From: Candidatus Uhrbacteria bacterium RIFOXYB12_FULL_58_10
GTDB taxonomy: Bacteria; Patescibacteriota; Patescibacteriia; UBA9934; GWF2-40-263
Reading direction: 5' to 3'
Length of the DNA stretch: 35,542 nucleotides
Assembly (NCBI GenBank): GCA_943359455.1
Contig: CALRHL010000012.1
Coordinates: 1 to 35,542, forward strand
The notes under the pieces are model-generated. The model had not been told where the DNA came from, searched no databases, and worked only from the letters and a program-made list of their open reading frames with translations. This document shows, in pieces, positions 1,801 to 35,408 of the stretch. The first letter of the stretch is position 1. Each line of letters opens with the position of its first letter. A program made the translations under genes and the position numbers.

Positions 1801-2805
1801 TTATGGGAGTTCGTAGAGCACAATACTCTGAAACGCTGCGGCTTCGAGAAACCAAAATGATGATTCGATCGAAAGAAGTTCTCCATCTTTTTCATCCTCT
1901 TGCTGATACACTTCCACAGCTTCAAGATCTTCATTATACCTGACGATAAACGATAGACCTCCCACCTCTTCCTTCACTTCCTTCGCCTTTATCAGACGAT
2001 CGAGCGGAAACACATATCGGGTTACCTCCCCCAACCCCTCCTTTACAAGGAGAGGGGACAGCCCATACACAATCGTTTTTGCTGGTAATCGATCGTCGTA
2101 GGATGTGAGTGGATACCAAATTGCTTGCGTGGATAAATAATTGTCGTAAGGATCACGTGTGTAATCACGATCGGCTCCCGTCTCGCGCGATAGCACCTGT
2201 CCATTTGGATAGTTCAACTTCCATACATCCCAAGACATAACGGACGAAGGATAGCGCTTCAAAAACTGTCCATCCGCTTCCCCCAAGACGGCGCGACCAA
2301 GAATCTGACTCCAGAATGAACTCGTCTTTGTATCAATCATGAGAAGATTATTGTTCCAAACATTTTCTGAAACATGAAACAACGGTCGTTCGCTCATCTC
2401 GCTCAGATCAAACACAGATCCTGTGAACGTCAACGGAGCGTACGTCACGACGATCGGCCGATCGTCGAAAAGATCATTCACCACCTGATGCCAGACGAGC
2501 AACTGATACGGATAAAAACGATGCTTCCCTCCCACTTCAACATCCAATCCAAACCCATCATCATTCAAATACACATCTGCCGCGCCAACGGATTCGAATT
2601 GAGGATTATCGATCGAAGGCACCGCCCCAGCCATCATCCCCGTCGGAACAAAATCTGTCTCAACCTCCCTCTCGGCCTCCTGGCCTAAAGCCTCACGGCC
2701 TTCCCTCTCAACCGGAACTCGATAATACCAATGCATCCCGTACAGCATTAAAGCAACGGCACACCCAAATCCCCCTGCAATCAAGAAGCCAGTTGTACGT
2801 TTCAT
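1801..2805 (-). CDS. DUF3179 family membrane-anchored protein
   Basis: 334 aa, function unknown. An N-terminal membrane segment (residues 7-27) puts the rest outside the cytoplasm. Family features: FYPYQLLVWHQVVND (97-111), RPIVVTYAPLTFTGSVFD (116-133) and DYTRDPYDNY (214-223), which match the DUF3179 pattern. The usual Cys pair of that family (YCPLCGTG) is replaced by YAPLTFTG, so any Cys-based metal or redox role seems lost. Two stretches look like repeat-derived insertions: residues 33-47 (VEREGREALGQEAER) and 249-261 (LSPLLVKEGLGEV), the latter between IVYG and YVFPLDRL, where relatives run straight through. First gene of the DUF3179-rsmI-metG operon, with a promoter at 2820-2847. Confidence 0.85.
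   Translation of the reverse strand: MKRTTGFLIAGGFGCAVALMLYGMHWYYRVPVEREGREALGQEAEREVETDFVPTGMMAGAVPSIDNPQFESVGAADVYLNDDGFGLDVEVGGKHRFYPYQLLVWHQVVNDLFDDRPIVVTYAPLTFTGSVFDLSEMSERPLFHVSENVWNNNLLMIDTKTSSFWSQILGRAVLGEADGQFLKRYPSSVMSWDVWKLNYPNGQVLSRETGADRDYTRDPYDNYLSTQAIWYPLTSYDDRLPAKTIVYGLSPLLVKEGLGEVTRYVFPLDRLIKAKEVKEEVGGLSFIVRYNEDLEAVEVYQQEDEKDGELLSIESSFWFLEAAAFQSIVLYELP
2024..2058. repeat. palindromic repeat, family A, inside the DUF3179 gene
   Basis: Core CCCCTCCTTTACAAGGAGA, an imperfect palindrome preceded by a C-rich tract. It belongs with the copies at 33246-33278 and 34448-34487 and more distantly with 32529-32572. It is read in frame here as LSPLLVKEGLGEV. Confidence 0.75.
2671..2709. 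repeat. GGCCT-type repeat, family B, inside the DUF3179 gene
   Basis: Contains GGCCTCCTGGCCTAAAGCCT followed by CACGGCC. Related tracts lie in pepA (6162-6200), dnaX (34231-34315) and between genes (7222-7251). Encodes about residues 33-47 of the host protein, between the membrane anchor and the domain. Confidence 0.6.
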
Positions 2806-30556: not shown

Positions 30557-31564
30557 ATGGGTCCTTTGAAACCCAGAAAACGGATTATTGTTTCGCACAT
30601 TCCGGAACATGCGGACGAAATGTTGGCGGAATGGATTTTTCGGAAGTACGGTCAACGACGGTTTGCGTGGGATGAACGTAATCCAGTGCAGACGCTCTAT
30701 GCCACTTCTGATGAGGAAGTTCTTTCATTCATCGGTGGACGTGAAGCGGATTGTGTTGTGATCGGCATGCTCGGATACGACTACAATGGCCCGAAGGGTC
30801 TCACGATCTTTGACGAGCACGGCAAAAATGGTCGTATGCCGAACACGACGTCTGCAGACCTTGTCGCCAAATACCTCGGTGTCAGCCATCTTCCAGAACT
30901 AAAAATGTTGCTCGACGAAATCCGAAAAGCGGACACACAGTCGGGACAGCAACAGCTCGAACTTGGCCAGCTTCTCAAAGTGATGGCAGGCTATGGAACG
31001 TTGCATGTAGACGAGATGACCTCATTCATCTTCGCGGCATTCGACGCGTACCATGCGCGAGCTGTGGAATTCAACGAGACATGCGCTCATGAGTTTCAAA
31101 AACATGGGGTGATGGAAACGCTGAACGGATTCAAAATCGCATTCGTTGAAAGCGATCTGCGTTCCATGAATGGGTGGTGTCGTAGCAAAAAAGGTGCAGA
31201 CATCATCGTGCAGATGAGACAAAACGGTTCTGTGCAAATGTTCATTCGAACGACGGAACGAAATAAAGCGGGTGTGTGTGCCATTGCACGTGCAATCATG
31301 CAGGCCGAATTTGACCACGCGGCAAACCTAAACGTGGAATTGGTAGACCTAGTGGAACAGTTCGATAAGATCGTCGCGTCAGGAAAAGGCCGCGATCTCC
31401 CGGGAGCTGAGCACTGGTACTACTTCCACGAAGCCGGACAGTTGCTCAACGGCTCCACAACGCATCCGAACATCAGGCCAACGGAACTATCACGTTCCGA
31501 AATCGCCCGCGCCGTTCGGAAAGGACTGTCATCAATCCCTCCACTCACCAAAACCACTCAGTAG
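30557..31564 (+). CDS. MYG1/DHH-like phosphoesterase-family protein
   Basis: 335 aa. Three points match the MYG1 (UPF0160, DHH-superfamily) scheme: a His/Asp N-terminal metal site IIVSHIPEHADEMLAEWIF (11-29; compare THxGxFHxDE), VVIGMLGYDYNG with FDEHGKNG (67-92; compare VDVGGxYD ... DHHQ) and TTSADLVAKYLG (97-108; compare SSAGLVYKHFG). The C-terminal part (GVCAIARAIMQAEFDHAANL ... HEAGQLLNGSTTHPN) resembles the matching region there. MYG1 is a 3'-5' RNA exonuclease in eukaryotes; activity here is inference, and one His of the DHH motif is Glu-His. Own promoter, ribosome site and terminator. Confidence 0.6.
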   Translation: MGPLKPRKRIIVSHIPEHADEMLAEWIFRKYGQRRFAWDERNPVQTLYATSDEEVLSFIGGREADCVVIGMLGYDYNGPKGLTIFDEHGKNGRMPNTTSADLVAKYLGVSHLPELKMLLDEIRKADTQSGQQQLELGQLLKVMAGYGTLHVDEMTSFIFAAFDAYHARAVEFNETCAHEFQKHGVMETLNGFKIAFVESDLRSMNGWCRSKKGADIIVQMRQNGSVQMFIRTTERNKAGVCAIARAIMQAEFDHAANLNVELVDLVEQFDKIVASGKGRDLPGAEHWYYFHEAGQLLNGSTTHPNIRPTELSRSEIARAVRKGLSSIPPLTKTTQ

Positions 31565-31581
31565 TCTGAGTGGTATTTTTT
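31553..31581 (+). terminator. rho-independent terminator
   Basis: ACCACTCAG-TAGT-CTGAGTGGT then ATTTTTT; the stop codon of the MYG1-like gene is in the structure. Confidence 0.93.
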
Positions 31582-31588
31582 GGTCTAT

Positions 31589-31750
31589 TAGACCTGTTGC
31601 TGTATAAGCTCCAGCCCAAAATGTCATATTTCGCCAAACTCTCGGTAAAATATTTTAAGCTTAGCTTAGGCTAAACAAAAAATATTTTACCGTCGACTTT
31701 GTCTGAAATCTGCCATTTTGGATCAAGGAGCTTATACAGCAACAGGTCTA
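31589..31750. mobile_element. 162-bp MITE with perfect 24-bp terminal inverted repeats
   Basis: Ends 31589-31612 and 31727-31750 are exact inverse copies (starting TAGACCTGTTGCTGTATAAG). Further inverted matches lie inside: GGTAAAATATTTT against AATATTTTACC, and AAAATG against CATTTT, so most of the element can fold into one long hairpin. CTAT flanks both sides (31585-31588 and 31751-31754), a likely 4-bp target duplication. No ORF. It abuts the hicA stop codon (31751-31753). Confidence 0.88.
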
Positions 31751-31966
31751 CTATGTGATGAAGTCATCCATGTTCAGTCCTGACTGTCGCATGATCGATC
31801 GAAAAGTACCAAACGGGATTTCCTTGCGATTTGCAGGGACAATGACCACACGTGATGGAGAACCAACTTTTCGAAATTTTTCATGACTTCCTCTTGTTGA
31901 AACAAAAACGAACCCGTGTTGTAACAGGATCGTTTCAATTTCTTTCGATGACAAAAATTTAGACAT
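31751..31966 (-). CDS. hicA: HicA mRNA interferase toxin
   Basis: 71 aa. Small dsRBD-like ribonuclease that cuts mRNA; neutralised by HicB. Pattern SSKEIETILLQHGFVFVSTR then GSHEKFRK, with the catalytic His (His28) in GSHEKF, and IPFGTFRSIMRQSGLNMDDF typical for HicA ends. Overlaps the end of hicB by 8 bases, so it is translated from the same mRNA after the antitoxin. Its stop codon is directly against the MITE, possibly within the duplicated target. Confidence 0.92.
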   Translation of the reverse strand: MSKFLSSKEIETILLQHGFVFVSTRGSHEKFRKVGSPSRVVIVPANRKEIPFGTFRSIMRQSGLNMDDFIT

Positions 31967-32177
31967 GTTGGAATGAACACGCTACCAGCCGTGGCATTCG
32001 AATACGCGAAACGTGTGGTCGTGGAGTATCCTCAAAATAAAGTGAAAGTGCCTCATCTAGATTTTTTTGAGCCTCTTTTCTTGTTTTCCCAAAACTAGAC
32101 ACATCAACATTCAGACACTGAGCAACATAATATTTATCTTCTTTCCAAATAATATTGTGGAGTGAAATGCTTCTCAT
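31959..32177 (-). CDS. hicB: HicB antitoxin
   Basis: 72 aa. Partial RNase-H-like fold that masks HicA: NIIWKEDKYYVAQCLNVDVS, SFGKTRKEAQKNLDEALSLY. The usual C-terminal DNA-binding domain (HTH or RHH) is missing or very short (RPHVSRIRMPRLVACSFQHV), so it may not repress its own promoter, or relies on another protein. Order antitoxin then toxin. Promoter TTGTAT/TATACT ends 9 bases before the ATG, giving an almost leaderless mRNA. Confidence 0.88.
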   Translation of the reverse strand: MRSISLHNIIWKEDKYYVAQCLNVDVSSFGKTRKEAQKNLDEALSLYFEDTPRPHVSRIRMPRLVACSFQHV

Positions 32178-32878: not shown

Positions 32879-33880
32879 CTAATAATCAAGTCCTTCTCTT
32901 GCTTTCACTCCTGAATAAAAATAGTGCTTACGGAGTTTCATCTCAGTTACAAGATGCGCGCGGTCAAGAAAGGCGTCAGGGGCGTTGCGGCCAGTGAGAA
33001 TCAGCTCTGTCTGATCCGGCTTCTGGTCAATCACCTTAATCACCTCACTCACCTCTAACAAACCAAGATCAACCGACGAATTAATCTCGTCCATGACCAC
33101 GAGATCGTACCCGTCCAGAAACATTTTTTTCACTTCTATCAGACCGCGCTCTGCTTCGTCTTTGTCGATCTGCTGGATGGAAAAATCAAAACGATTTGTA
33201 ACCGGATCGATGCGGTCGCGACCAGTCGGGACGTAGCGCAGATAACCACCCCCTACCCCTCCTTGAAAAGGAGGGGAGAACTTGTATAAAATGAGTCTTT
33301 CAAAATAATGCGTGTCCCCTCCTTTGTCAAAATACACAATCCCAACTTTTTTTCCAGCTCCAAGTGCGCGGATCGCTGAGCCGAGACCGGCAGTTGTTTT
33401 TCCTTTGCCGTTTCCTGTAAAAACTTGTACAAGTCCGTACCCTTGTCGACCCTTAATCGCCTCATCTGCCGCGACAACGATCCCTTCTGACTTCCGATAC
33501 GCTTCCAAAACTTCGACAACAGGTGGATGCGCATCTTTTGGAAATGCTTGACGCGGGTCGATCCAAATACAAGATCCATGCTCATCAGACAAGACAATCT
33601 CAACATCCAAAACTGGCACAACATAAAATACACTTGCGACTGGTTCAGGTGGAGTCCCCTTATACGGATACACTCCAACAAAAAATGGCCGTGCCTTTGC
33701 CGGGTCAACCGTAACACCTGTTTCCTCTCTTAACTCACGAACAAGCCCTTCCAACATATTCTCCCCTTCATCCATCCGTCCCCCAGGCAAATCCCATCTA
33801 CCATCTCTCAACATCATGATCAAAATTTTCCCATGAGGATTTACAAGAACGGCTTTATTCGATACTTGCATTTTGTGCAT
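32879..33880 (-). CDS. NUDIX hydrolase fused to CobO/BtuR-like cobalamin adenosyltransferase
   Basis: 333 aa from ATG 33880, just after the dnaX stop; the longer frame runs into dnaX. Residues about 5-135 are a NUDIX domain with the box GGRMDEGENMLEGLVRELRE then ETG (33-55). From about 146 a CobO/BtuR-type ATP:corrinoid adenosyltransferase follows: P-loop GNGKGKTTAGLG (156-167), DLVVMDEINSSVDLGLL and TELILTGRNAPDAFLDRAHL. The CobO half is near full length, ending KAREGLDY. Residues 202-213 (SPPFQGGVGGGY) come from a family A repeat inside the domain. This fusion is unusual; roles in B12 salvage and nucleotide clean-up are family inference. Confidence 0.85.
   Translation of the reverse strand: MHKMQVSNKAVLVNPHGKILIMMLRDGRWDLPGGRMDEGENMLEGLVRELREETGVTVDPAKARPFFVGVYPYKGTPPEPVASVFYVVPVLDVEIVLSDEHGSCIWIDPRQAFPKDAHPPVVEVLEAYRKSEGIVVAADEAIKGRQGYGLVQVFTGNGKGKTTAGLGSAIRALGAGKKVGIVYFDKGGDTHYFERLILYKFSPPFQGGVGGGYLRYVPTGRDRIDPVTNRFDFSIQQIDKDEAERGLIEVKKMFLDGYDLVVMDEINSSVDLGLLEVSEVIKVIDQKPDQTELILTGRNAPDAFLDRAHLVTEMKLRKHYFYSGVKAREGLDY
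33246..33278. repeat. palindromic repeat, family A, inside the NUDIX-CobO gene
   Basis: Core CCCCTCCTTGAAAAGGAGGGG, preceded by ACCACCCCCT. All but one base of the shared GATAACCACC... to GGAG stretch equals the dnaX copy at 34448-34487, and both are read in the same frame as SPPFQGGVGGGY. Confidence 0.88.
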
Positions 33881-33884
33881 AGTT

Positions 33885-35408
33885 TTAGACAACAGATCCT
33901 CCAAACGCCCCAAGTAAATCTTCGACGACAACTTCCATCTCCTTCTTCACATGTTTTGCTTTGATACGAACAGAACGGCCAAGGACGCGAGTGAACACCT
34001 GTTCGAGGAGCTTTCGATTTTTGTCTTGATTGATCGCGTCCACATAAACGGGATACGCAAAGGACATTTCGATTGCGTCACCATCGACGGCGGAAACTTC
34101 TCCTGTCTGAACAACCATTGGGAGCGTTGCGTTGCATTCTTTAATCTGCTGAAAAACTTCCGGCCATTTGCGTCGAACATCTTCGAGATCGAGGACTGGC
34201 ACGGTGCCGAGGGCGGTGGAGACAGAAGAAAGGCCGAGAGGTTTTAGGCCGAGAGGTTCGGAGGGAGATTCTGTATTTTTTCCTCCAGGCCTAAAGCCTA
34301 ATGCCTCAAGGCCTTTTTCCTCCACCTGTTCTTTTGGGTCGTCATGAACGCGACATGCCTTTATGATGGCTAATTCAAGTGGGAGAGAGATGATTTTTGC
34401 ACTCCGCATCTGTCTGCGCGCTTCGAGGAGGGATTCGATCAGCAACGGATAACCACCCCCAACCCCTCCTTGAAAAGGAGGGGAGTTTGTCTGAGGGAGA
34501 AACGAAGTCATCATCTTGTCTCGCAGCTGTGCAATCACATCTTCGACAAAATATGGAAGGTCGAGGCCTTGTTCTTGACCGTCCTTAACGATCTTGAGTG
34601 ACTCAGATCTGTCAGAACGAATCAACGCCGCAACAAATGCATCGACGAGCAACGCATTTGTCGCGGGCAAGACAAGAGATGCTTCGTTCATCGTAATCTT
34701 TATATTCCCTGAGCGTGTCGAAGGGCCTGCAAGTCCAAGCACCTGTCCGAGCATACTCTCTGCATCGCGCAACCCTCCATCAGCATGTCTCGCAATTTCA
34801 ACGAGCACGTTTTTATCAACAGAAATTTTTTCTTGTTCAACGATCTTTTCCAATCGTTCCAAAATTACCTCAACAGACAATCTCTTAAAATCAAACCGCT
34901 GACAGCGACTGATAATTGTTGCAGGGACTTTGTGCGTTTCTGTTGTTGCTAAAATAAATAATGCATGCGCTGGAGGCTCTTCCAGTGTTTTCAAAAGCGC
35001 ATTAAAAGATGATGTCGAAAGCATGTGTACCTCATCGATGATGTACACTTTGTATTTCAATTTATTCGGAGCAAACCGAACACTCTCAATAATATTCTCT
35101 CGTACACTCTCCACGCCTGTGTTCGACGCGGCATCAATCTCGCAGATATCGAGTGCAGAACCTTTGGCGATTTCAAGGCAGGGTGAACAAGATCCGCAAG
35201 GCTCCCCGTCTTGATTCTTCTCACAGTTCACCGCCTTCGCAGTCAGCCTCGCCACAGTCGTCTTTCCAACTCCACGTGGACCTGTTAACAAATACGCATG
35301 CGAAATCGAACCAGTGGCGATCTGGTTTTGTAGCGTCGTTTTCACATGATCCTGCCCTGTCACATCCGCAAACGTGGCAGGACGATATTTGCGGTAGAGG
35401 ACTTCCAT
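33885..35408 (-). CDS. dnaX: DNA polymerase III subunits gamma/tau
   Basis: Clamp-loader ATPase. 507 aa: Walker A GPRGVGKTT (43-51), zinc Cys62, Cys71, Cys74, Cys77 (CEKNQDGEPCGSCSPC), Walker B IIDEVHML (123-130), sensor 1 LATTETHK, and SRCQRFDF. The AAA+ core is intact to about 225. After it three repeat-derived peptides occur: GPSTRSGN (228-235), NSPPFQGGVGGGY (308-320), and EKGLEALGFRPGGKN with EPLGLKPLGL (364-393). The last lies in a linker before the C-terminal tau-like domain; the other two are in domain III. Starts 2 bases after the stop of the upstream partial gene; the NUDIX-CobO gene follows 4 bases later. Confidence 0.95.
   Translation of the reverse strand: MEVLYRKYRPATFADVTGQDHVKTTLQNQIATGSISHAYLLTGPRGVGKTTVARLTAKAVNCEKNQDGEPCGSCSPCLEIAKGSALDICEIDAASNTGVESVRENIIESVRFAPNKLKYKVYIIDEVHMLSTSSFNALLKTLEEPPAHALFILATTETHKVPATIISRCQRFDFKRLSVEVILERLEKIVEQEKISVDKNVLVEIARHADGGLRDAESMLGQVLGLAGPSTRSGNIKITMNEASLVLPATNALLVDAFVAALIRSDRSESLKIVKDGQEQGLDLPYFVEDVIAQLRDKMMTSFLPQTNSPPFQGGVGGGYPLLIESLLEARRQMRSAKIISLPLELAIIKACRVHDDPKEQVEEKGLEALGFRPGGKNTESPSEPLGLKPLGLSSVSTALGTVPVLDLEDVRRKWPEVFQQIKECNATLPMVVQTGEVSAVDGDAIEMSFAYPVYVDAINQDKNRKLLEQVFTRVLGRSVRIKAKHVKKEMEVVVEDLLGAFGGSVV
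34231..34315. repeat. GGCCT-type repeats, family B, inside dnaX
   Basis: AGGCCGAGAGGTTTTAGGCC and CGAGAGG (34231-34259), then AGGCCTAAAGCCTAATGCCT and CAAGGCC (34287-34313). Two units with a non-repeat centre, read in frame as EALGFRPGG and PLGLKPLGL. Confidence 0.7.
34448..34487. repeat. palindromic repeat, family A, inside dnaX
   Basis: GATAACCACCCCCAACCCCT, then CCTTGAAAAGGAGGGGAG. Near-identical twin of 33246-33278; read in frame as NSPPFQGGVGGGY. Confidence 0.9.
34706..34728. repeat. CCCTGAGC..CGAAGGG repeat, family I, inside dnaX
   Basis: TCCCTGAGCGTGTCGAAGGG, a short imperfect palindrome of a kind seen widely in bacterial genomes; read in frame as GPSTRSG. Confidence 0.6.

What the first reader, a model, noticed from the sequence alone, without database searches (positions are those of the whole stretch)
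31585..31754. 162-bp hairpin-forming MITE exactly against the hicA stop codon
Perfect 24-bp inverted ends, internal inverted matches and a CTAT duplication mark a recent non-autonomous insertion between the MYG1-like terminator and hicBA. Its right end touches the toxin's stop codon, so the toxin mRNA 3' end is now a long hairpin that could alter its stability.
Basis: seen in the sequence. Interest (0 to 1): 0.55.

Follow-up and report, generated by a model that had tools for sequence, protein, structure and literature searches.

The report
Widespread jumping hairpin beside toxin gene
The hairpin beside the toxin gene is a 160-base non-coding mobile element, one copy of a family scattered through many ultra-small bacteria, that sits against the gene's stop codon about as often as chance predicts.

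Summary
The 24-bp perfect ends and the hairpin are real. The element proper is 31590-31749 (160 bp). It is a MITE: a second full copy (154/160 identical) lies on contig C1, a 29-bp deletion derivative on C2, and two related copies are cut off at contig ends. A model built from 43 elements finds the family in 60 of 380 genomes of the class (training genomes included). The ends match an IS5-family insertion sequence whose transposase was recognised in only 4 of 380. One occupied/empty comparison exists, left side only. Lying against a stop codon is not unusual: 49 of 125 elements, 49.7 expected. Two things remain odd. Both full copies in this genome sit on 3' ends of two hicA genes that do not match each other by tblastn. 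And among divergent relatives the two arms change together (26 of 31). The effect on hicA mRNA is untested; the terminator scan found none in the element.

The parts
31590..31749 (.). MITE, 160 bp, ends AGACC...GGTCT, near-palindromic
   Evidence: complete match to family model 1-158, E 8.4e-19 (this copy is one of the model's 43 training sequences)
31590..31612 (+). left terminal inverted repeat (23 bp perfect)
   Evidence: its 22-mer GACC..CTCC also at C1 and C2 of the genome
31727..31749 (-). right terminal inverted repeat (23 bp perfect)
31587..31589 (.). left copy of 3-bp target duplication, ATT
   Evidence: register set by 82 family members
31750..31752 (.). right copy of target duplication, ACT (one mismatch); overlaps two bases of the hicA stop codon
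31643..31692 (.). inner AT-rich hairpin with tip around GCTTAGCTTAGGC
31751..31966 (-). hicA toxin gene (71 aa), stop codon one base from the element
   Evidence: Pfam PF07927 E 3e-15
31959..32177 (-). hicB-like antitoxin gene (72 aa)
   Evidence: Pfam DUF7387 E 1.8e-6; position before hicA
31553..31574 (+). terminator-like stem-loop after the upstream gene, just left of the element

Best explanation
[quoted passage not shown] It has no gene of its own and was moved by a transposase acting in trans on the AGACCTGTTGC ends, duplicating a 3-bp A-N-T target. In compact genomes A-N-T sites lie often at gene ends. The element also carries its own stops: the target T plus AG makes TAG, and the frame AGA CCT GTT GCN TAA reads R-P-V-A-stop, so landing at or just before a stop codon is tolerated. 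Shown: copies, ends, duplications, related autonomous elements, one left-side empty site, genes ending inside the ends. Inferred: trans-mobilisation of this particular copy (no matching transposase was found in this genome), and any effect of the 3' hairpin on hicBA mRNA, the most plausible being protection of its 3' end.
For: Second full copy and 29-bp deletion derivative in the genome; ATT/ATT duplications at C1 (read) and C2. Two contig-end copies match the model, E 4.3e-4. 35 contig stretches with paired ends in the public genome collection, 25 of them with Patescibacteria lineages in the record title. Identical 3-bp duplication 30 of 48 and 44 of 82. Autonomous elements with the same or similar ends: L061/L116 1023 bp, L118 1040 bp, L120 1021 bp; transposase Pfam DDE_Tnp_4 E 2.7e-28. 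Two of three inspected cyanobacterial homologues have like ends on both sides. Left flank in G008 is 81% identical up to 4 bp before the G026 element, which is absent there. Genes ending inside the ends: C1 hicA and an L017 ORF, an L113 ORF.
Against: No transposase of this type in the window's genome or 58 relatives. NCBIfam IS5 models score below their cut-offs (75.5 of 140; 32 of 110). Window duplication has one mismatch. A second end class (43 of 125 elements) shows 0 of 43 duplications in this register. No two-sided empty site, and none at all for the hicA copies. Coevolving arms are more than a decaying MITE needs.
Confidence: 0.9

Rival explanations
1. The hairpin is a mobile but selected RNA element: it moves as a MITE, and is kept because its transcript protects, processes or attenuates neighbouring mRNA, here of the toxin.
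For: 114 of 125 elements are 158-164 bp long (partly by construction, since the search pattern admitted about 149-179 bp and the model has 158 positions); own arms match better than any swapped arm in 26 of 31 elements under 70% identical; interior without the ends folds at z below -3 in 37 of 54; both full copies in this genome at hicA ends, same orientation.
Against: No bias to 3' ends (49 of 125, 49.7 expected) or to gene orientation (p 0.94). Copying one arm from the other during replication would also keep arms matched. RNAalifold finds consensus pairs in the ends only. 17 of 54 interiors do not reach z -3.
Confidence: 0.2
2. The element is a transcription terminator or RNA gene that belongs to hicBA.
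For: Two of five hicA genes in the genome have it.
Against: The other three hicA genes lack it; among 17 small ORFs abutting elements only these two are recognisable hicA (the others were judged by eye, not scanned); no terminator-like site in the element (a scan that allows loops of 3-8 only); no Rfam family reaches its threshold there.
Confidence: 0.03
3. The two hicA placements reflect a real preference or retention at toxin loci, not chance.
For: Both full copies lie at hicA ends whose sequences do not match each other; roughly a thousand genes and five hicA make that rare by chance (estimate, not a call).
Against: Noticed after the fact; none of the other elements with a small abutting ORF shows a recognisable hicA.
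Confidence: 0.2

Closest known systems
ISDge6 (Deinococcus geothermalis, IS5 family, ISL2-like; PMC7674623, passages seen)
   Same: Ends AGACCtGCTGCGAAA...; 3-bp direct repeat; DDE transposase; reported to have inserted into a pigment gene
   Different: 1,122 nt and autonomous; direct repeat TCA, not A-N-T
IS5-family element L061 (G101) and cyanobacterial homologues (Leptolyngbya, Stanieria plasmids)
   Same: Same or similar ends; L061 flanked by ATT/ATT
   Different: About 1 kb with a transposase (299 aa in L061); the interior was not seen to be shared with the MITE (by eye, no call made for it)
Other palindromic bacterial MITEs: ERIC and Correia (recalled), RUP (named in the abstract of PMC3049150, listing), Nezha (named in the reference list of PMC10969869, passage)
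   Same: Short, non-coding, near genes, moved in trans (recalled)
   Different: Not compared by sequence here

Membership tests
MITE | short, no own transposase | tested here: met
   160 bp, too short to hold a transposase gene
MITE | several copies in the genome | tested here: met
   two full, one deletion derivative, two cut by contig ends
MITE | target-site duplication | tested here: met
   family: 44 of 82 identical; window copy itself ATT/ACT, one mismatch
MITE | autonomous parent with the same ends | tested here: met
   L061, L118, L120 in other genomes have the same or similar ends; no such transposase in own genome
MITE | empty site | tested here: inconclusive
   left side only for the G026 member; none found for the hicA copies
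IS5 family, ISL2 group | DDE transposase of IS5 type | tested here: inconclusive
   DDE_Tnp_4 over cut-off; NCBIfam IS5 models hit below cut-off
IS5 family, ISL2 group | 3-bp duplication and ISL2-like ends | tested here: met
   compared by eye with ISDge6 text in PMC7674623. A-N-T as the usual ISL2 target is recalled, not from a call
intrinsic terminator | stem followed by T run | tested here: not met
   (consensus scan)

The most novel reading that the evidence does not exclude
A class-wide mobile hairpin of nearly fixed 160-bp size whose two arms coevolve under selection, so that a transposable element acts as a portable RNA or single-strand DNA structure in Patescibacteria, with the two hicA copies as instances kept because they tune a toxin mRNA.
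Probability: 0.18. Interest if true: 0.65.

Novelty: new member of a known kind. Interest (0 to 1): 0.4.

Why it matters
It gives Patescibacteria, few of which are cultivated, a described family of small mobile elements with ends, target and likely parents. The family is far commoner than the transposase recognised for it (60 against 4 of 380 genomes; the two searches differ in kind and threshold), and the coevolving arms make a testable case of structure kept in a non-coding mobile element. Searches for a report of it: 'miniature inverted-repeat transposable' with 'candidate phyla radiation' gave 0 papers; 'mite' with 'patescibacteria' gave 16, and 'patescibacteria' with 'insertion sequence' and 'transposase' gave 11, none about such elements by title or start of abstract (listings only, papers not read). 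Supplements and most subscription papers were not searched.

Tried and rejected
TA-only (IS630/mariner-like) target: first suspected because TA flanks the copies; replaced by A-N-T after flank statistics. Bias to stop codons: 23 of 48 against a null fraction of 0.387, p 0.12 (19 of 48 against 0.321, p 0.17 with longer ORFs); in the larger set none. Phage origin: the one viral match of a 19-mer lies in what looks like a phage structural gene, judged by eye, and may be chance; the paired-end pattern found 0 in viral contigs. Exact 22-mer in genome contigs: 0. RNAalifold on the sequence alignment recovered only the ends, so the model R1 carries 16 pairs. Orthologous hicBA sites in the genus: not found. 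A blastn-type search of the class with the window element gave 10 of 380 genomes; of its 9 foreign matches, L015, L016, L019, L020 and L021 show no such ends on inspection and were dropped, L018 looks like a member but fell outside the end cut-off. For A1, 43 of 54 elements were used; 11 with large insertions or unclear fit were left out. In some searches entries became 129 after removing duplicates and 125 after dropping 4 near locus ends. The Fukatsuia element L098 fits neither orientation (98 against 97); it was left out of A1 but not out of the flank counts. The model was not run on genomes outside the class, so its limit to this group rests on the record titles alone.

Full report
OBSERVATION. 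Between a 335-aa gene with a terminator-like stem-loop (31553-31574) and hicA (31751-31966, minus strand, Pfam HicA E 3e-15) lies a near-palindrome. The hicA-sense strand folds at -92.1 kcal/mol, z -14.3. The element proper is 31590-31749, 160 bp, with 23 bp of perfect ends from AGACC, or 24 with the flanking T/A.

COPIES IN THE GENOME. The genome (1.07 Mb, 44 contigs) holds a second full copy at C1:42624-42783, 154 of 160 identical. At C2 there is a 29-bp derivative that keeps both outer ends and is flanked by ATT/ATT. Contigs C21 and C22 each end inside a related copy, 146 of 146 bases alike, matching the model at E 4.3e-4 and cut by the contig end. A single end lies at C1:34256.

FAMILY. 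The end pattern TAGACCTGTTGCNTAA with up to one mismatch occurs in 37 of 380 class genomes (scattered matches of the reversed control pattern occur too). Paired ends about 160 bp apart were found in 35 contig stretches of the public genome collection (the window's own genome may be left out there). 25 of the 35 record titles name Patescibacteria lineages (Staskawicz-, Falkow-, Moran-, Magasanik-, Komeili-, Azambacteria, Parcubacteria or Patescibacteria group), 8 say only bacterium or uncultured bacterium, one Lysobacteraceae, one Fukatsuia. A profile model from 43 elements matches 60 of 380 genomes of the class at E<=0.001 (50 of 319 good ones; 54 of 291 genera); genomes that gave training sequences are counted, E-values are rough. 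114 of 125 elements are 158-164 bp long, median 160, partly because the search pattern and model favour that size. Two classes of ends occur: AGA-type at both ends (82 of 125) and others (43 of 125), 33 of which begin with GGG, as GGGTCTGTCGCC.

TARGET. In the AGA class the three bases outside each end are identical in 44 of 82 (shuffled mean 16.0, maximum 28), and 51 of 82 have A-N-T on both sides. In the first set it was 30 of 48 (shuffled 13.4, maximum 24); one of the 18 non-identical rows, L007, was a one-base edge error of mine and reads ATT/ATT. The other class gives 0 of 43 in this register; its target was not worked out.

PARENT. G101 carries a 1023-bp element with ends TAGACCTGTTGCGTATTAA, flanked by ATT/ATT, and a 299-aa transposase. 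Pfam DDE_Tnp_4 E 2.7e-28; NCBIfam IS5 models below their cut-offs. Relatives at E<=1e-10: 4 of 380 class genomes, 6 places. Of the four other places inspected, L118 and L120 have same or similar ends, L117 and L119 showed none; L121 was not inspected. None was found in the window's genome and 58 relatives. 95 plasmid records have homologues, all under 60% identity, the best listed 44.7%, from Acinetobacter, Deinococcus, cyanobacteria and others; two of three inspected cyanobacterial ones have similar ends on both sides. ISDge6, an ISL2-like element of Deinococcus geothermalis, has ends AGACCtGCTGCGAAAcaAGGGGC and a 3-bp repeat (PMC7674623, passages). No genome was found that holds both a recognised parent and an AGACCTGTTGC hairpin shown to share its exact ends: the six G101 hairpins read have GGGTCTGTCGCC-type ends, and the G367 hairpin has AGACCTCTTGC/AGACCTTTTGC ends.

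EMPTY SITE. The element in G026 (L069) is missing in G008 at the matching place: the left flank is 81% identical and the match ends at base 737, the element starting at 742; G008 has its own copy elsewhere. The right flank is not syntenic. For the two hicA copies no orthologous site was found: the left gene has no match in the four genus siblings searched, and downstream of rpoC the siblings G003 and G004 show other genes in the stretch held.

POSITION. Of 125 elements 49 have a gene 3' end within 30 bp, 49.7 expected at A-N-T sites of the same loci; 5' ends 36 against 39.0; within 15 bp 40 against 34.8 (p 0.17); 2 of 125 lie fully inside an ORF (genes were called as long ORFs, not annotated). 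Neighbour orientation is as expected (80 tandem, 20 divergent, 13 convergent of 113; p 0.94). So sitting on a stop codon is ordinary here. The ends supply stops: C1 HicA ends ...RSVAV, an L017 ORF ...RPVAL and an L113 ORF ...RPVA inside the element. Both full copies of this genome stand at hicA ends, in the same orientation, although the two HicA proteins do not find each other by tblastn at E 0.01; three other hicA genes of the genome lack it. I cannot tell chance from retention.

STRUCTURE. Interiors without the ends fold at z below -3 in 37 of 54 (median -4.1). Among 31 elements under 70% identical (from 115 of length 156-164), the two arms of one element match with median score 17.5, swapped arms 1.0; own is best in 26 of 31. 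Paired fraction 0.633 against 0.571 in permutations (maximum 0.598), double changes 190 against 114 (maximum 151). The permutations do not keep relatedness. This shows arms that change together; it does not tell selection from arm-to-arm copying.

VERDICT. A MITE of the IS5 family (ISL2 type), a new family of a known kind.

Noticed in passing
window 33245-33274, 34452-34481, 2024-2053 (minus strand): A GC-rich palindromic repeat read in frame as PPFQGGVGGG (SPCKGGVGGG in one); the first two lie inside long ORFs, the third was not checked; perhaps another small mobile repeat.
   Followed up: partly
G000 contigs C21 and C22, last 146 bases (L059, L060): Both contigs stop inside identical copies of a related hairpin, so the element probably broke the assembly.
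   Followed up: partly
L184-L189, L224-L227 and others: A second class of about 160-bp hairpins with GGGTCTGTCGCC-like ends, no duplication in the A-N-T register; target and parent unknown.
   Followed up: partly
L073 896-1113: A family member of 218 bp that holds an inner stretch beginning GGGACTGTTGCCGAATA, like the ends of the other class; possibly a nested insertion.
   Followed up: no
window 31959-32177: The hicB partner matches only Pfam DUF7387 (E 1.8e-6) and no NCBIfam model at E<=0.001.
   Followed up: no
   Followed up: no
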